The notes under the pieces: model-generated
What the model saw: only the letters and a program-made list of their open reading frames with translations
What the model was told of the DNA's origin: nothing
Databases searched by the model: none
Source of the DNA: Verrucomicrobiales bacterium
GTDB lineage: Bacteria > Verrucomicrobiota > Verrucomicrobiia > Verrucomicrobiales > DEV007
Direction of reading: 5' to 3'
Assembly (NCBI GenBank): GCA_023253615.1
Contig: JALRFZ010000681.1
Coordinates: 1-5,421, forward strand
Length of the DNA: 5,421 bases
Part shown: piece after piece, positions 1-5,300 of the stretch
How the letters are laid out: each line of letters starts with the position of its first letter
Numbering within the stretch: position 1 is the first letter of the stretch
Position numbers and translations under genes: made by a program

Positions 1-156
1 AAACTCGGCCTTCCCACCGTCGAGATCCGCTGCCCCGATTACCACCCCTTCGAAATCAACATCACCCGAGCCCGCGCCGTCCTCGGTTACGCCCCGGAGA
101 ATGACTTCTTCCGCATGGCGGACCGCGCGGTGGAGACGGTAATCGGTAATCGGTAA
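1..156 (+). CDS. NAD-dependent epimerase/dehydratase, C-terminal end only (5' truncated by window)
   Basis: Frame 1 is open from the first base and reads 51 codons to TAA at 154-156. The stretch around residues 19-35 (INITRARAVLGYAPEND) matches the conserved C-terminal signature of extended short-chain dehydrogenases, where a 'D-x-(S/T)-K/R-A-R-x-x-LGY-x-P' segment precedes a final helix; here that helix is FFRMADRAVE. The family consists of cytoplasmic NAD(P)-binding enzymes that epimerise, dehydrate or oxidise sugars, often nucleotide sugars. The Rossmann fold and catalytic Tyr-Lys pair lie outside the window, so the substrate cannot be judged. The last five residues (VIGNR) and the stop codon are encoded by the 7-nt repeat array that starts at 139, so the native C-terminus may have been altered by repeat insertion. 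The class call is fairly secure and the exact function unknown. Confidence 0.75.
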   Translation, partial: KLGLPTVEIRCPDYHPFEINITRARAVLGYAPENDFFRMADRAVETVIGNR

Positions 157-180
157 TCGGTGATCAGTATCCAGTTTCCC
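139..180 (+). repeat. Heptanucleotide tandem array 1 (6 units, GTAATCG type)
   Basis: Six consecutive 7-nt units fill 42 bases. The first three are exact GTAATCG, the next three decay progressively, and the last is GTTTCCC. Every unit begins with GT. Because 7 is not a multiple of 3, the TAA in the first three units falls in all three forward frames (140, 147 and 154), and the third TAA ends the epimerase gene. The array runs without a spacer into the octamer array at 181. A slippage-born satellite, an RNA-level signal or a stop cassette are all possible. It resembles the array at 1344-1378. Confidence 0.85.
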
Positions 181-212
181 ACCACTCCACGAATCCACCA
201 CTCCATCCCTCC
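181..212 (+). repeat. Octanucleotide tandem array (4 units) abutting a start codon
   Basis: Four 8-nt units occupy 32 bases. Units 1 and 3 are identical (ACCACTCC). Units 2 and 4 each differ from that at two positions, but all start with A and end with TCC. The array ends at 212 and the ATG of the VOC gene is at 213-215, so the repeat forms the whole immediate leader of that gene. The leader is C/T-rich and contains no Shine-Dalgarno sequence. Together with array 1 it accounts for the entire gap between the first two genes. Confidence 0.75.
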
Positions 213-548
213 ATGAGAGAGTTCCACCACATCGGCCTCCCCACCGACCAGAGCCAGCCCGGCGAGTTCTTCGTCGCGGACACCCGCGTCTGGGTCACCG
301 ACCCTCGCAAACATCCCTACAAGGTCGAATACCTGCGTTTCGAAGCGGACAGTCCGGTGACCGGTCCGGTGCGCGACATGCCGCACGTGGCCTATCGCGT
401 CGACGACATCGCCGCGGCGATCGCGGGGGAGGAGGTCATCCTCGAGCCCTTTGAGCCTTCGCCGAATTTCACCGTCGCCTTCATCCTCAAGGACGGGGCC
501 GTCATCGAATACATGAAGTTCGATCGCGAGGAAGACCTGCCCTGGTGA
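213..548 (+). CDS. VOC-fold (glyoxalase/dioxygenase-like) metalloprotein, 111 aa
   Basis: This small single-domain protein belongs to the vicinal oxygen chelate superfamily, whose members bind a divalent metal and act on vicinal-oxygen substrates as isomerases, lyases, epimerases or dioxygenases. The two beta-alpha-beta-beta-beta modules are visible: HHIGLP at residues 5-10, VEYLRF at 38-43, PHVAYRVDDI at 57-66 and VIEYMKF at 97-103. The expected metal ligands are all in register: His6 (or His5), Glu39, His58 and Glu99. An active metal site is therefore likely, in contrast to the degenerate sites of many VOC proteins. The ATG at 213 suits the family because the first ligand normally lies within the first ten residues. 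No Shine-Dalgarno is present; the leader is the octamer array. The stop (TGA 546-548) lies six bases before the SDR start, so the two are probably translationally coupled and may act on the same metabolite. The substrate is not recognisable. Confidence 0.85.
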   Translation: MREFHHIGLPTDQSQPGEFFVADTRVWVTDPRKHPYKVEYLRFEADSPVTGPVRDMPHVAYRVDDIAAAIAGEEVILEPFEPSPNFTVAFILKDGAVIEYMKFDREEDLPW

Positions 549-554
549 TCCCTT

Positions 555-1325
555 ATGAACCTGAAAAACAAAGTCATTCTCGTCACCGGAGGCACCTCCG
601 GGATCGGCGAGGCCTGCACGCGTCACTTCGCCGCGCTCGGCGCCAAGGTCGTCACCACCTCGAACCAGCAGGACCGCGGCGAGGCGCTCGAGGACGAGCT
701 GCGCGCAGCCGGCAAGGAGGTGCGGTTCATCCACGCCGACGTCTCGAACGAGGAGAGTGTCAAAGCGCTCGTTGATTTCACCGTCGTCGAATACGGGCGT
801 CTCGACGGCGTCCATTGCAACGCCGGGGTCTGGGGCAAGGGCAAGGTCACGGAGTTCGACGAGGCGATCTGGGAGAAGATCATGAACGTGAACGTGAAAA
901 GTGTCTTCTGGACCGCCAAATACGCCATCCCGGCGATGGAGTCTTCGGGCAAAGGCGTCTTTCTCGTCACCACTTCGGTCGCGGCCTTCATCGGCTTTCC
1001 GGCCCACGCGCTCTACTGTGCGTCGAAGGGCGCGCTCGAGTCGCTGATCCGCTGCCTCGCCACCGACCACGCCGGCAAGGTGCGTGTCGTCGGGATTTGT
1101 CCCGGCACGATCGATACGCCCATGCTGGCGGCCACCTGCGACGGATGGGACAAACCGGTCGAGGAACTCTACGCCGAGGTCGCCAAGAAGATTCCGGTGC
1201 GTCGTCTCGGACAACCGGTCGACATCGCGAAGACGGCCGCGTTCCTCTTGAGTGAGGATTCCGAATACATCAACGCGACCTCCATCGTTCTTGACGGGGG
1301 AACCATGGCGCTGCCACCGTGGTGA
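555..1325 (+). CDS. Classical short-chain dehydrogenase/reductase (SDR), 256 aa
   Basis: This is a complete classical SDR of normal length (about 250 residues), a cytoplasmic NAD(P)-dependent oxidoreductase that interconverts an alcohol and a ketone. Visible motifs are TGGTSGIG at residues 11-18 (dinucleotide binding), a D-V pair at 62-63 contacting adenine, NAG at 89-91, and the full catalytic tetrad Asn113, Ser141, Tyr154 and Lys158 (YCASK). PGTIDTP at 183-189 and a closing IVLDGG near 248 follow. The residues after beta-strand 2 (TTSNQQ) show neither the Asp typical of NAD enzymes nor a clear Arg of NADP enzymes, so cofactor choice is open. The start is fixed by MNLKNKVILVTGG, the usual SDR N-terminus. 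The nearest purine run (526-535) is too far upstream to be a normal ribosome site, which favours coupling to the VOC gene six bases before. The TGA at 1323-1325 runs into a hairpin. The family assignment is firm; the substrate, probably a sugar, polyol or hydroxy acid, is inferred from neighbours. Confidence 0.95.
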   Translation: MNLKNKVILVTGGTSGIGEACTRHFAALGAKVVTTSNQQDRGEALEDELRAAGKEVRFIHADVSNEESVKALVDFTVVEYGRLDGVHCNAGVWGKGKVTEFDEAIWEKIMNVNVKSVFWTAKYAIPAMESSGKGVFLVTTSVAAFIGFPAHALYCASKGALESLIRCLATDHAGKVRVVGICPGTIDTPMLAATCDGWDKPVEELYAEVAKKIPVRRLGQPVDIAKTAAFLLSEDSEYINATSIVLDGGTMALPPW

Positions 1326-1343
1326 GCGCGACGAAGTCGCGCT
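1325..1343. repeat. Perfect inverted repeat (8-bp stem, 3-nt loop), REP-like
   Basis: The arms AGCGCGAC (1325-1332) and GTCGCGCT (1336-1343) are exact reverse complements around a GAA loop. The first base is the last base of the SDR stop codon, and the next heptamer array starts directly after the second arm. A stable GC-rich RNA hairpin would form. No T-run follows on either strand, so it is not a standard intrinsic terminator. Its position in the gap suggests a REP-like dispersed palindrome or an mRNA processing or stability element, but only one copy is visible here. Confidence 0.7.
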
Positions 1344-1378
1344 GTAAAAGGTAAAGAGTAAAAGGTAAAAAGTTTCAG
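1344..1378 (+). repeat. Heptanucleotide tandem array 2 (5 units, GTAAAAG type)
   Basis: Five consecutive 7-nt units cover 35 bases. Units 1 and 3 are exact GTAAAAG, units 2 and 4 are near-copies that keep GTAAA, and the last is GTTTCAG. TAA falls in all three forward frames (1345, 1352, 1359, and again 1366). The array begins directly after the hairpin and ends six bases before the ATG of the Gfo/Idh/MocA gene. Its A-rich sequence is sharply lower in GC than the surrounding genes and might act as an unstructured ribosome-loading leader. It shares strand, unit length, GT phase and a closing GTTTC unit with the array at 139-180. Confidence 0.85.
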
Positions 1379-1384
1379 ATTGAG

Positions 1385-2383
1385 ATGAGAAGATTAAAAC
1401 ACGCTGTCCTTGGTCTCGGTTGGTTCGGGGAGAAACATTGTGAGGCGCTCGCGGCTATTCCGAACGTGGAGATCGCGGCGGTGTGCACGCGGAATCCGGA
1501 GCGGCTCGCCGAAGTCGCGGGCAAGTTCGGCGTGAAAAAGACCTACACGGATTTCCACGCGATGCTCGCCGATCCGGAGATCGAGTCGGTCAGCATCACG
1601 ACGATGTGGGACCAGCATGCCGATCCCGCCGTGGCCGCGCTCGAGGCCGGAAAACACGTCTTTCTCGAAAAGCCGATGGCTTCGACGGTGGCGGACTGCG
1701 ACCGCATCGTCGCGGCGGCGAATACGGCGAGCGGCTTTTTCATGACCGGTCACATCTGCCGCTTCAATCCGCGGTATGCCGCCGCCAAGGAAGCGATCGA
1801 GGCGGGCCGCATCGGCAAAATCGTCTCGATGTATGCTCGGCGGAACCTGCCCTCCTGGGTGGGCGCGACGGTGCTCGACAAGATCGGTCCGATCATCGGC
1901 GACGGCGTTCACGACACCGACCTCATGTTCTGGTTCAGCGGTTCGCGCGCCGTCAGCGCCTACGCGCAGACCGTGCAATACCGCGACCACGCCCACCCCG
2001 ACCTCGGGCAGGTGATGTACCGTCTTGAAAACGGTGCCTCGTGCATTCTCGAGGCGGTCTGGTGCCTGCCTGACACGACACCTTTCCAGATCGACGAGCG
2101 CCTCGAGATCGTCGGCACGGAGGGGTCCATTTCCATCCACGACACCCATCCGAACCTGATGGTCGTCGACAAGGATGGTGCGCGTTGTCCCGACACGACC
2201 TACTGGCCGACCCAGCACGGCAAATTGCGCGGCGCCCTGCGCGACGAACTCGCTTACTTCGCCCAGTGCGTCCTCGACGGGGAGCGGCCCACCGTGATCA
2301 CTCCCGAGGAGTCGCGCGAGGCCGTGCGCGCGTGTCTCGCCGCGGAGGAATCGGCGCGGACCGGGCAGGTGGTGATGATTTGA
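1385..2383 (+). CDS. Gfo/Idh/MocA family oxidoreductase, 332 aa
   Basis: This is a complete NAD(P)-dependent dehydrogenase of the glucose-fructose oxidoreductase / inositol dehydrogenase / MocA family, cytoplasmic since no signal peptide is present. The N-terminal Rossmann domain (residues 5-120) carries G-L-G-W-F-G at 10-15, the end of strand 2 at CTR 34-36, and the hallmark EKP at 95-97, whose Lys96 is the usual catalytic lysine. The C-terminal alpha/beta domain (about 121-332) carries GHICRFNP at 122-129 and GDGVHDTD at 172-179, with His176 at the position of the catalytic histidine and Asp173 nearby. The C-terminus (SARTGQVV) is typical. In-frame upstream codons reach a TAA inside the repeat array, so the ATG at 1385 is the natural start; no good Shine-Dalgarno precedes it. 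Members oxidise sugars, inositols, sugar acids or nucleotide sugars. Without a search the substrate is undetermined. The next gene follows after 14 bases, consistent with one operon. Confidence 0.95.
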   Translation: MRRLKHAVLGLGWFGEKHCEALAAIPNVEIAAVCTRNPERLAEVAGKFGVKKTYTDFHAMLADPEIESVSITTMWDQHADPAVAALEAGKHVFLEKPMASTVADCDRIVAAANTASGFFMTGHICRFNPRYAAAKEAIEAGRIGKIVSMYARRNLPSWVGATVLDKIGPIIGDGVHDTDLMFWFSGSRAVSAYAQTVQYRDHAHPDLGQVMYRLENGASCILEAVWCLPDTTPFQIDERLEIVGTEGSISIHDTHPNLMVVDKDGARCPDTTYWPTQHGKLRGALRDELAYFAQCVLDGERPTVITPEESREAVRACLAAEESARTGQVVMI

Positions 2384-2397
2384 TCCTTCCCCCGAAA

Positions 2398-5300
2398 ATG
2401 AAAGCGCTTTGCTTCGCCCTATTTCTCTCGGGCTCCTCCCTATTTCTCTCGGGCTCCTCCCTTTTGCAGTCGGCCGACTGGCAACCCGCCAAAGTCCCCG
2501 GCGCGATCCCCACGTCCGGCACCACGTGGCTGCGCTGTTGGGTGAAGCCGCACGACAGCTTCTTCACGAAACACGATCGCAACCTCTTCGAGGAATCGGT
2601 CGGCTTCCATTTCAGCGACCTGCCCGGCTCGCATGAAGTCTGGGTGAACGGAGTGAAGATCGGCGGCGGGAGTGAACCCGGCTTCCTCCGCTACAAGGTA
2701 CCCGTCGGCACGCTCGTGCCCGGGCAGTGGAGCGAGATCGCGGTCAAAACGAGTCCGGTGGGCGGAGAGATCGGATTCCGCAAGGAAGCGCCCTTCCTCA
2801 TGAACTATTTCTGGGAATGCATCTTCGAGGGCGAATGGGAGCAGCTCTCCGGCGAGTACACCCCGGGCAAAGCCCTCCCCGAAAAACCGGCTCGGCCCGC
2901 CTTCGAGGAATTTCGTGAATCGAATCGCGTCCTCGGTCGCGCCGAGCAGGTCCATGGACCGAAACTCAACCCTGACGAAGCCGCCAAAACCTTCACCGCG
3001 ACTGATGAATTGAAGGTCGAGCAGCTCCTCGCCGAGCCTGACGTCGCGCAGCCCTTCCACTTCAGCTACGACGGAAAAGGGCGCCTCTGGGTGATTCATT
3101 CGAAGCAGTATCCCTATCCGGCGGGACTCCGCATGCTGAGTCGCGACCGCTACTACCGCGCCCACTACGACAAGGTGCCGCTCGCGCCGCCACATCACGA
3201 TCCCGGGGCCGATCTCGTGACGATCCACGAGGACACCGACGGCGACGGGCGCTACGACTCGCGCAAGGTCTTCGTCGAGGGGCTGAACATGGCCAACGCG
3301 GTCCTGCCGGGCAAAGGTGGCGTCTGGGTGATGAACGCGCCCTACCTGCTTTTCTTTCCCGATGCCGACGGCGATGACAAACCCGACGGCGATCCCGTGG
3401 TGCATTTGTCAGGATTCGGATTCGAGGACAGCCACTCCGCCGCGAACGGACTTGTCTGGGGTCCCGACGGCTGGATCTACGGCGGCCAGGGCAGCACCGT
3501 CTCGTGCCGGGTCGTGCGTCCCGGTCTCGATCCCGAGGGGCACACGGGCGTCTACTTCGAAGGTTGCATGGTGTGGCGATACCACCCCGGGACGCGGGCC
3601 TTCGAGATTTTCGCGGAAGGCAGCGGCAACACCTTCGGGCTGGAGTTCGACTCGGTGGGACGGCTTTATTCAGGGCACAACGGCGGCGGCACGCGTGGCT
3701 GGCATTACGTGCAGGGCGGCTTCTACCTGATGCAGGGTGTCGATCCCGGCAAGTTCGGGCCCCCGCGCAATCCCTACGCCTTCGGCGATCTGCCGATGAT
3801 GGCGACGAAGGATCCCGTGGTGCGTTTCACCCACTTCGGCGCCTTTGCCGACGGCACCGCGATGCCCGAGGCGGTGCGCGGGATGCTCTTCGCGATCGAT
3901 CCGCTCCACAACGAGGTCATCGCCACCCGGTGGCAGGCGCGCGGATCGACCTTCGAGACGGTCGATCATGGCACGGTGGTGAAGAGCAGCGACCCGGCCT
4001 TCCGTCCTGTCTATCTCGCCAATGCGCCCGATGGCTCGCTCCATGTCGCGGACATGTACGAATACTACATCGCCCACGGCCAGCACTATCAAAACCAGAT
4101 CGATCCGACTTCGGGACGGATCTACCGGGTCGCGGGGAAGGGGATGGAACTTGAGAACGAACTGACACTCTCGGCCTTGGACAGCGCGCAGCTGATCAGC
4201 CTGCTCGATCACCCGAACAAATGGCATCGTCGCACCGCGACCCGTCTCCTTGGTGAACGCGGGGATGAGTCGGTCGTGCCGAATCTGAAGGAACTCGCCG
4301 TGAGCGGAAACGGAACCGCCGCGCTCCACGCACTCTGGGCGCTTTACCAGATCGCGGGACTCGATGATGCGATTTCGGAAAAAACCCTCGCCCATGCCGA
4401 CCCGGCGGTGCGCGGTTGGACGGTGCGTTTGTTAGGCGACGCCTACGGCATCCAGCGCAACCTCGGCCTGCCGCCGGCCCGCACCGAGGCCTATCCGCTG
4501 GCGACGAATGTCTTCGACACCCTCCTCGCCCGCGCCGCGGTCGAGCCCGACGCCGAGGTGCGTTCGCAAATGGCTTCGACCGCCCGCCGCCTCGCCAACG
4601 AACAGGCCTTTCCCCTCGTTGCCGCCCTGCTCAGCCGGGACGAGGATATGAACGATCCCTACCTTCCGCTGCTCTGCTGGTGGGTCCTCGAGGCGCATCT
4701 TCCCTCATCAACGGAGGATGTGATGGCGCTCTTCGAAATCCGCGCCCTCTGGGACAAGAAGATCGTGCAGGAACATCTGCTTCCCCGCATCGCGCGGCGT
4801 TTTTCGGTCGAAGGCAAACGGCAGGATTTGCTCCAGCTCGCCAAACTTCTCCGTCTCGCGCCCGGACCGGAGCAGGCCGGGAAACTGCTCGAAGGATTCG
4901 AGGAAGCCTACCGTGGCCGAACCATGACCGCCTTGCCCGAGGAATTGCTCACCGCGATGGCTGCATCGGGCGGAGCCTCCCTCGGCATTCGCCTGCGCCA
5001 GGGCGATGAAGCCGCGGTGAAAGAGGCGCTCGCCTTCATCACCGATCCGAAGGCTCCGCTCGACGAGCGGCTCCGCTACACCCGCAGCTTCGGCGAGATC
5101 AAGCGGGCGGAGGCCGTGCCGGAGCTCATGAAACTCGCGACCGCCGAAGGCGAGAGCGGTCTTCGCCGCGCCGCCTTCGCTTCGCTCGGCGCCTACGATG
5201 ACCCGGCGATCGCCACCGAGACCCTGACAAACCTGCCAAAACTCCCGGAAGTTGTGCGTCCCGCCGCCTTCACCCTGCTCGGCAGCCGCCCGGCTTGGGC

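What the first reader, a model, noticed from the sequence alone, without database searches (positions are those of the whole stretch)
139..1378. Two heptanucleotide arrays at different gene junctions share one grammar
Arrays at 139-180 and 1344-1378 have different core units (GTAATCG and GTAAAAG) yet follow the same rules: unit length 7 without slips, the same strand relative to the genes, GT at the start of all eleven units, GTAA in most, exact copies first and decayed copies last, and a terminal unit of GTTTCCC or GTTTCAG. Simple polymerase slippage would not explain the same polarity and the same closing unit at two loci with different cores. This suggests a dispersed family of period-7 elements with a defined direction, perhaps recognised as RNA or made by a dedicated copying mechanism.
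Basis: partly seen in the sequence, partly recalled or inferred. Interest (0 to 1): 0.7.

Follow-up and report, generated by a model that had tools for sequence, protein, structure and literature searches.

The report
GT-locked seven-letter DNA repeat family
A bacterial genome and many of its relatives carry short DNA repeats, seven letters long and locked to the letters GT, at gene junctions and even in frame inside genes; they are likely made and renewed by a DNA-copying process, which would help explain a long-unexplained excess of seven-letter repeats in bacteria.

Summary
Both arrays are real (3 pattern hits, 0.01 expected) and belong to a dispersed family in an uncultured, probably Verrucomicrobiales, genome and its relatives. 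Arrays found without assuming GT still keep GT invariant (32 of 41 occurrences; other dinucleotides 102 of 281; p=4e-7). Opposite-strand neighbours within 150 bp converge in 14 of 14 cases. At the SDR-to-Gfo junction sister species carry arrays of different units (GTAAAAG, GTTCAAA, GTTCTTG), so arrays turn over. New here: arrays sit in frame inside PSCyt2/DUF1549 genes. In 16 arms heptamer positions 1, 2, 4, 6 stay 97% conserved at every codon position while 3, 5, 7 drift: a period-7, frame-blind constraint on DNA. Likely mechanism: 7-nt recopying restarting at GT; main rival: a GTnAnY-reading DNA protein. Some relatives have heptamers outside this grammar. Heptamer arrays with convergent pairs are known in Xanthomonas: a new variant of a known kind.

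The parts
139..180 (+). GT-heptamer array 1: GTAATCG x3, GTGATCA, GTATCCA, GTTTCCC
154..156 (+). TAA stop codon of the upstream gene, supplied inside the array (C-terminus ...VIGNR*)
1325..1343 (+). perfect 8-bp stem, GAA triloop hairpin directly 5' of array 2
   Evidence: (z -2.9 for 1326-1380)
1344..1378 (+). GT-heptamer array 2: GTAAAAG, GTAAAGA, GTAAAAG, GTAAAAA, GTTTCAG, between the SDR and Gfo/Idh genes
1..156 (+). 3' end of the upstream gene (51 codons seen; no Pfam match to the fragment)
213..548 (+). conserved 111-aa protein, no Pfam match (called 'VOC' in my scripts; label recalled, untested)
555..1325 (+). short-chain dehydrogenase (adh_short_C2)
1385..2383 (+). GFO/IDH/MocA oxidoreductase, used as anchor for orthologous junctions

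Best explanation
The two arrays belong to a genome-wide family of 7-bp tandem arrays locked in phase on GT, likely made and renewed in place by a DNA-copying process that steps 7 nt and restarts at GT, rather than being fixed regulatory sites. Shown: the family, the invariant GT, the convergence of neighbouring arrays, the change of unit at orthologous junctions, hairpins on the 5' side only of GTRAAAR arrays, and in-frame arrays in genes whose conservation has period 7 and ignores codons. Inferred: a polymerase copying the GT strand stalls (often at a hairpin just 5' of the array), its 3' end ...AC slips back to the next GT seven nucleotides away and recopies a unit. Most products inside genes would be purged, so arrays survive at gene ends, in spacers and in tolerant protein linkers. 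Why positions 4 and 6 are also kept is not explained by this model.
For: Period 7 is the commonest of periods 4-22 in 80 loci fetched by protein (28 arrays; next is 14 with 18) and in 359 kb of G014 (13; one shuffle 0). GT/AC is invariant in 32 of 41 occurrences, other dinucleotides in 102 of 281 (p=4.4e-7). Blocks of different units stack in one phase, GTAAAAG then GTCGGCG then GTGGGCG in L249. At the SDR-Gfo junction 9 of 12 orthologous loci have GT heptamers directly after the SDR gene, of three unit classes, including (GTTCAAA)12; G014 is degenerate and in G032 the Gfo gene lies 1.2 kb further on. At one coding slot (after LTGLPP in PSCyt2) 24 of 51 parsed loops have period-7 score 9 or more, of three unit classes; one orthologue pair differs by 21 nt = 3 units (L312/L367). 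Hairpin within 3 nt 5' of 12 of 35 GTRAAAR arrays, 3' of 0 of 35, random positions 6.9% (p=2e-6). mutS1 is over cut-off in 55 of 56 genomes, so loss of mismatch repair is not the cause.
Against: Simple recopying would homogenise all seven positions, but 3, 5 and 7 differ between neighbouring units while 1, 2, 4 and 6 hold; this looks more like a read motif. Grammar positions at codon position 3 change less than flanking 4-fold sites (3/30 against 178/513, p=0.005), as selection would do. Growth at the 5' edge is weakly supported, and GT-edge statistics are confounded by the variable positions 7 and 3 beside GT. In the random G000 contigs alone period 7 (3 arrays) is not the top period. 4 of 17 arrays with score 10 or more in G014 have no GT phase. 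Five PSCyt2 loops carry CAATCCG, which lacks GT. In one search the reversed control beat the pattern in several genomes, and GTCANTN explains this only in part: 369 of 423 hits in G205, but 6 of 114 in G037, 9 of 177 in G215, 2 of 29 in G237, so other heptamers exist there. Calothrix plasmids show 5 period-7 runs, none fully GT-phased.
Confidence: 0.42

Rival explanations
1. The arrays are binding sites for a DNA-binding protein that reads G-T-n-A-n-pyrimidine-n every 7 bp, as the ribbon-helix-helix omega/ParB protein of pSM19035 reads WATCACW heptads; selection keeps the four read positions.
For: Spaced conservation of positions 1, 2, 4, 6, blind to codons; grammar wobble sites slower than 4-fold sites; convergent arrangement; known precedent of a 7-bp-step reader that needs four or more contiguous heptads (PMC9499535, passages).
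Against: One genome holds many unit classes (GTAAAAG, GTCGGAG, GTTGGCG, GTCACGG, GTCATTC) and three classes share one coding slot, which one binding specificity does not predict; the same junction swaps class between sister species. No candidate protein was searched for.
Confidence: 0.27
2. The arrays are parts of short mobile elements (REP or MITE-like) spread by a transposase; the heptamers are a by-product.
For: Two composite forms with GTAAAAG arrays recur in the fetched G000 and G014 sequence: GTAAAAGGTNGGAA (8 sites) and GTGCCAGARRCGAA-flanked (6 sites); GTRAAAR arrays abut hairpins. Y1 transposase density correlates weakly with array density over 56 genomes (rho 0.27, p=0.047).
Against: Hairpin sequences differ and carry no adjacent GTAG, GGAG or CGTC tag on their 5' side (13 looked at). 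Over the 42 genomes at least 90% complete the Y1 correlation is 0.14 (p=0.38), and array-rich G035 has no Y1 match. Unit swaps at one junction are not element insertion.
Confidence: 0.15
3. Ordinary polymerase slippage on chance repeats, with no special role for GT.
For: Heptameric repeats are over-represented in bacteria and slippage tied to polymerase footprint was proposed (cited in PMC4692102, Discussion read).
Against: GT invariance, 14 to 0 convergence and codon-blind grammar are not predicted.
Confidence: 0.08
4. The arrays act as RNA regulators (translation or transcript processing).
For: Suggested for TAACTGA arrays upstream of starts in Beggiatoaceae (PMC4679880 abstract).
Against: No strand preference relative to genes (14 same, 20 opposite); 21 of 83 arrays inside called genes; no covariation of convergent arms (0.494 against 0.513 shuffled, 18 loops); no Rfam match at gathering score in the window.
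Confidence: 0.05

Closest known systems
Xanthomonas GGGANTN heptamer arrays (PMC4692102; passages, sections 10 and 16 read)
   Same: Heptamer arrays dispersed in spacers; some unit positions fixed and others variable (1-4 and 6 fixed); 70 and 75 convergent pairs reported in two genomes; spacer sequence varies between close species
   Different: G-tract units instead of GT; authors tie them to G-quadruplexes; codon-blind conservation inside genes is not described in the sections read
TAACTGA repeats of Beggiatoaceae, Cyanobacteria, Bacteroidetes (PMC4679880; abstract and section 10 read)
   Same: Reverse complement is (GTTATCA)n, which fits GTnAnCn; indels mostly in 7-nt steps between two close Cyanothece strains; other heptamers mixed in
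   Different: One unit is followed; mostly just upstream of start codons in one species; no common grammar over units in the parts read
parS heptads of plasmid pSM19035 (PMC9499535; passages)
   Same: Contiguous 7-bp repeats, WATCACW (reverse complement WGTGATW), in direct and inverted order
   Different: Six defined plasmid sites bound by omega/ParB, not many chromosomal arrays with many unit classes
REP / GTAG-tagged palindromes (PMC3733652; passages)
   Same: Dispersed palindromes, reported in a Verrucomicrobia genome
   Different: The hairpins here lack an adjacent GTAG/CGTC tag on the 5' side and are followed by GTAA heptamers
Borg tandem repeats (PMC9879509; passages)
   Same: Recently formed arrays, independent at each locus, in spacers and genes
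   Different: Repeats in genes have unit lengths divisible by three; here the unit is 7 and the frame survives by stop avoidance and, in one pair, a 21-nt step

Membership tests
Bacterial heptameric simple sequence repeats | 7-bp tandem units at many loci, mostly in spacers | tested here: met
   (21 of 83 inside called genes)
Bacterial heptameric simple sequence repeats | excess of period 7 over neighbouring periods | tested here: met
   28 of period 7; periods 6 and 8: 8 and 6; G014 13; 6 and 3
TAACTGA repeats | unit TAACTGA | tested here: not met
   window units differ; GTTATCA-type units occur in L185
TAACTGA repeats | placed just upstream of start codons on one strand | tested here: not met
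   14 same, 20 opposite; window array 1 overlaps a stop codon
Xanthomonas GGGANTN | G-tract units able to form G-quadruplexes | tested here: not met
   window units and most units have no GGG tract; folding into quadruplexes not tested
Xanthomonas GGGANTN | convergent neighbouring arrays | tested here: met
   14 of 14 within 150 bp
REP / GTAG palindromes | tetranucleotide tag at the foot of the palindrome | tested here: not met
   tag word within 10 nt on the 5' side in 2 of 13 hairpins, adjacent in none
REP / GTAG palindromes | linked Y1 transposase in the genome | tested here: inconclusive
   21 matches in G000, 0 in array-rich G035
pSM19035 parS heptads | WATCACW consensus | tested here: not met
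   window units are not WGTGATW
pSM19035 parS heptads | omega/ParB gene and binding | not tested
   -
RNA-templated (reverse transcriptase) repeats | reverse transcriptase in array-rich genomes | tested here: not met
   9 of 18 genomes with 30 or more GTNANNNx4 hits have no RVT_1 match

The most novel reading that the evidence does not exclude
A dedicated DNA enzyme or DNA-binding copying factor reads G-T-n-A-n-pyrimidine-n and adds, swaps and preserves 7-nt units in convergent arrays. Heptamer families reported separately in Verrucomicrobiota, Xanthomonas, Beggiatoaceae and cyanobacteria would be dialects of one such system, visible even through coding sequence because it ignores the reading frame.
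Probability: 0.27. Interest if true: 0.87.

Novelty: new variant of a known kind. Interest (0 to 1): 0.64.

Why it matters
The excess of 7-bp repeats in bacterial genomes is known, but mechanism and role are called unresolved in the two papers of which I read most (abstract, Discussion). Arrays inside protein-coding linkers give a direct test: codon selection has period 3, so a period-7 conservation pattern that ignores codons isolates a force acting on DNA. Orthologous junctions that swap unit class while keeping GT phase show that the arrays are products of an active process. Either a new mutational mechanism or a widespread unknown DNA-reading factor would follow.

Tried and rejected
Closing unit GTTTC as a general rule: rejected (directly follows 6 of 173 cores; of these L176 counts twice and shares its junction with window array 2, and L167 is the orthologous junction of window array 1).

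Decay polarity from flanking GT units (54 arrays with extra GT units on the 3' side, 10 on the 5' side, of 114): withdrawn, because a partial unit at the 3' end begins with GT by definition; the phase-free comparison is flat. Edge-phase statistics: kept out of the argument because variable positions 7 and 3 flank GT and trim the edges there.

RNA hairpin selection on convergent pairs: 7 of 14 fold with z of -4 or lower, but free positions of the two arms do not covary (0.494 against 0.513, 18 loops).

Reversed-pattern control: not neutral, since it equals the reverse complement of GNCANTN. One search tested 16 genomes picked for high control counts with GTCANTNx3: 16 of 16 positive, but the share explained runs from nearly all (G155 115 of 116, G236 205 of 213) to little (G037 6 of 114, G215 9 of 177, G237 2 of 29). 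The remaining heptamers there were not looked at.

Cyanobacterial comparison in Calothrix plasmids (200 kb): 5 period-7 runs, none fully GT-phased; no support there.

Synteny by longest ORFs around L167: useless, wrong-frame ORFs in GC-rich DNA; gene positions later came from a codon model of my own, which misplaced the start of the Gfo gene in the window.

Full report
OBSERVATION. The window (G000:C229, a 5.0-Mb assembly in 802 contigs, 84.7% complete) holds the two arrays as described. The pattern (GTN5)4GT occurs three times in the window, all inside them, against a mean of 0.01 in dinucleotide-preserving shuffles. Array 1 overlaps the end of the upstream gene and supplies its stop codon. 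Array 2 starts directly after a perfect hairpin at the end of the short-chain dehydrogenase gene.

TAXON. The best relatives of the Gfo/Idh gene in named genomes are Akkermansiaceae and other Verrucomicrobiales assemblies, 97% identical at best. That the window comes from this group is inferred from this.

FAMILY. Hits overlap, so they count units more than arrays. In the assembly GTAATCGx2 has 14 hits (reversed control 0), GTAAAAGx2 with up to one mismatch 68 (control 1), GTNANNNx4 118 (control 17). Of 56 genomes from genus to order, own included, 46 have GTNANNNx4, from 0 to 245 hits. GTNANCNx3 occurs in 51 of 194 genomes of the phylum and 42 of 107 genera. In that search the reversed control had hits in many genomes and beat the pattern in several. 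Sixteen of these were tested with GTCANTNx3 and all 16 were positive: it accounts for most of the control hits in G205 (369 of 423), G236 (205 of 213), G155 (115 of 116) and G136 (147 of 162), but for few in G037 (6 of 114), G215 (9 of 177) and G237 (2 of 29). The phylum thus has at least two GT dialects, GTnAnCn and GTCAnTn, both of the form GTnAnYn, and further heptamers that I did not resolve.

GT-BLIND TESTS. I scanned sequence not chosen for GT: contigs of G000 taken by number (35 after dropping 7 masked ones, 250 kb), 20 stretches of G014 (359 kb), and 80 loci fetched by the Gfo/Idh protein (1.2 Mb). Period 7 gives 3, 13 and 28 arrays at score 12 or more; it is the top period in the last two. 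In G000 alone it is not (3 arrays; periods 9 and 15 have 6 each, multiples of the codon length). Among imperfect arrays GT/AC is invariant in 32 of 41 occurrences, other dinucleotides in 102 of 281 (p=4.4e-7). Non-GT heptamers exist too, for instance GCTAGGA in L173 and CAATCCG in genes.

ARRANGEMENT. Neighbouring GT arrays on opposite strands within 150 bp are convergent in 14 distinct cases and divergent in none (three further rows there repeat the same loci; p=6e-5). Of 35 GTRAAAR arrays 12 have a hairpin within 3 nt on the 5' side and none on the 3' side (random positions 6.9%); the hairpin sequences differ. For 88 other GT arrays the numbers are 8 and 0, near the random rate on the 5' side. 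Relative to genes there is no strand rule: of 83 arrays 21 lie in called genes, and between co-directional genes 14 follow and 20 oppose them (genes called by a simple codon model).

TURNOVER AT ONE JUNCTION. Orthologues of the Gfo/Idh gene (86-97% identical to own) were compared in 12 genomes of the genus, own included. Directly after the SDR gene 5 have GTAAAAG-class units (own, G010, G014 degenerate, G032, G021), 3 have GTTnAAA-class units (G030, G008, G018 with (GTTCAAA)12), 1 has GTTCTTG (G016) and 3 have none (G027, G001, G019). At the other junction, readable in 9 of the 12, own and G014 have GTAATCG, G010 and G030 have GTRAAAR on the other strand, G021 has a non-GT heptamer and G027, G008, G019 and G016 have none; another relative (L174) has GTTAGCG on the other strand.

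ARRAYS INSIDE GENES. G000, G014 and G010 have 58, 59 and 67 matches to PSCyt2 (PF07583, found in DUF1549-type proteins). Of these 184 I fetched 100 (60 as best-scoring loci, 40 chosen by hand from the list) and could parse the loop after LTGLPP in 51; the other 49 did not fit the search expression. Of the 51 loops 24 have period-7 score 9 or more: 17 convergent GTnAnCn pairs, 5 CAATCCG, 2 GTCGGA; loops without visible arrays reach 6. Plain loops read like TPEEVEAFVADQDPKAYEKLIDR. Arrays also lie in frame in a gene whose product resembles UvrA and in a glycosyltransferase-like gene (L105, L070; labels recalled).

CODON-BLIND GRAMMAR. Sixteen left arms share one codon frame (2 of 18 found with another offset were left out). 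Heptamer positions 1, 2, 4, 6 have mean major-base frequency 0.97 at codon positions 1, 2 and 3 alike; positions 3, 5, 7 have 0.72, 0.59, 0.62. Arms had been selected for at least 13 of 16 grammar matches, which alone forces 0.81, and they are related by descent, so they are not 16 independent cases. Unit 3 has T or C at position 3 in 15 of 16 arms; in this frame A or G before the usual A would make a stop codon (TAA or TGA). In six comparisons of true orthologues (three of them among one trio) free positions differ in 36 of 72 and grammar positions in 8 of 96 (p=1e-9). At codon position 3 the numbers are 16 of 24 and 3 of 30, while flanking 4-fold sites differ in 178 of 513 (p=0.002 and 0.005 against these). 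All 11 comparisons, paralogues and one pair with shifted flanks included, give 56 of 132 and 12 of 176. A period-7 pattern that ignores codons is not expected from selection on the protein.

MECHANISM. I favour a DNA-copying process with 7-nt steps that restarts at GT. It explains phase, new units at old junctions, perfect long arrays, stacked blocks and a 21-nt step in a gene (L312/L367). It does not explain positions 4 and 6, which fit a DNA-binding reader better; I give that 0.27. RVT_1 is not found in 9 of 18 array-rich genomes, and Y1 transposase in 1 of 18; densities correlate weakly with Y1 (rho 0.27, p=0.047 over 56; 0.14, p=0.38 over the 42 at least 90% complete) and not with RT. mutS1 is over cut-off in 55 of 56.

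KNOWN WORK. Heptamer arrays are reported in Xanthomonas and Nostoc (PMC4692102, passages and two sections read) and as TAACTGA in Beggiatoaceae, cyanobacteria and Bacteroidetes (PMC4679880, abstract and one section read). Convergent pairs and fixed against variable unit positions were already seen in Xanthomonas. My searches for Verrucomicrobia heptamers (none; two papers) and for heptamer repeats in bacteria (and, of whose 111 papers 20 were listed) showed no title on this group's arrays or on codon-blind conservation; I saw listings only, and subscription papers are not held. The alignment of GGGANTN, GTTATCA and GTnAnYn into one grammar is my own comparison of published consensus units and was not tested on those genomes.

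Noticed in passing
window 2417-2473: 21-bp tandem repeat (2.7 copies) in frame near the start of the DUF7133 protein gene, giving FLSGSSLFLSGSSL in a likely signal peptide.
   Followed up: no
window 179-213; G010 and G030 at the same junction: A separate period-8 run (CCACCACT, CCATCACT) just before the 111-aa gene recurs in orthologous spacers.
   Followed up: no
L066 369 and 2736, L106 845, L249 (three sites): Dispersed composite element: GTGCCAGARRCGAA followed by a GTAAAAG-class array (6 sites).
   Followed up: partly
L009, L010 (two), L011, L013, L014, L015, L055: Composite GTAAAAGGTNGGAA, in most copies followed by GTAAAAG units, with differing upstream hairpins (8 sites).
   Followed up: partly
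L065, about 3828-3862 and 4385-4430: Nested palindromic insert (AATACGCGAAGCGGATAGACG...CGTAGTCAA) sits beside or inside GT arrays at two sites.
   Followed up: no
L105 2721-2807: Convergent GT arrays in frame inside a gene whose product resembles UvrA (label recalled).
   Followed up: no
L176: The (GTTCAAA)n junction is duplicated across an N gap, probably an assembly error at the array.
   Followed up: no
G037, G215, G237: Many hits to the reversed control pattern that GTCANTN does not explain: heptamer arrays of another grammar.
   Followed up: partly
G005, G011, G012, G019, G020 (same genus): Zero GTNANNNx4 hits in genomes at least 91% complete, against 209 in G014: on/off variation within one genus.
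   Followed up: no
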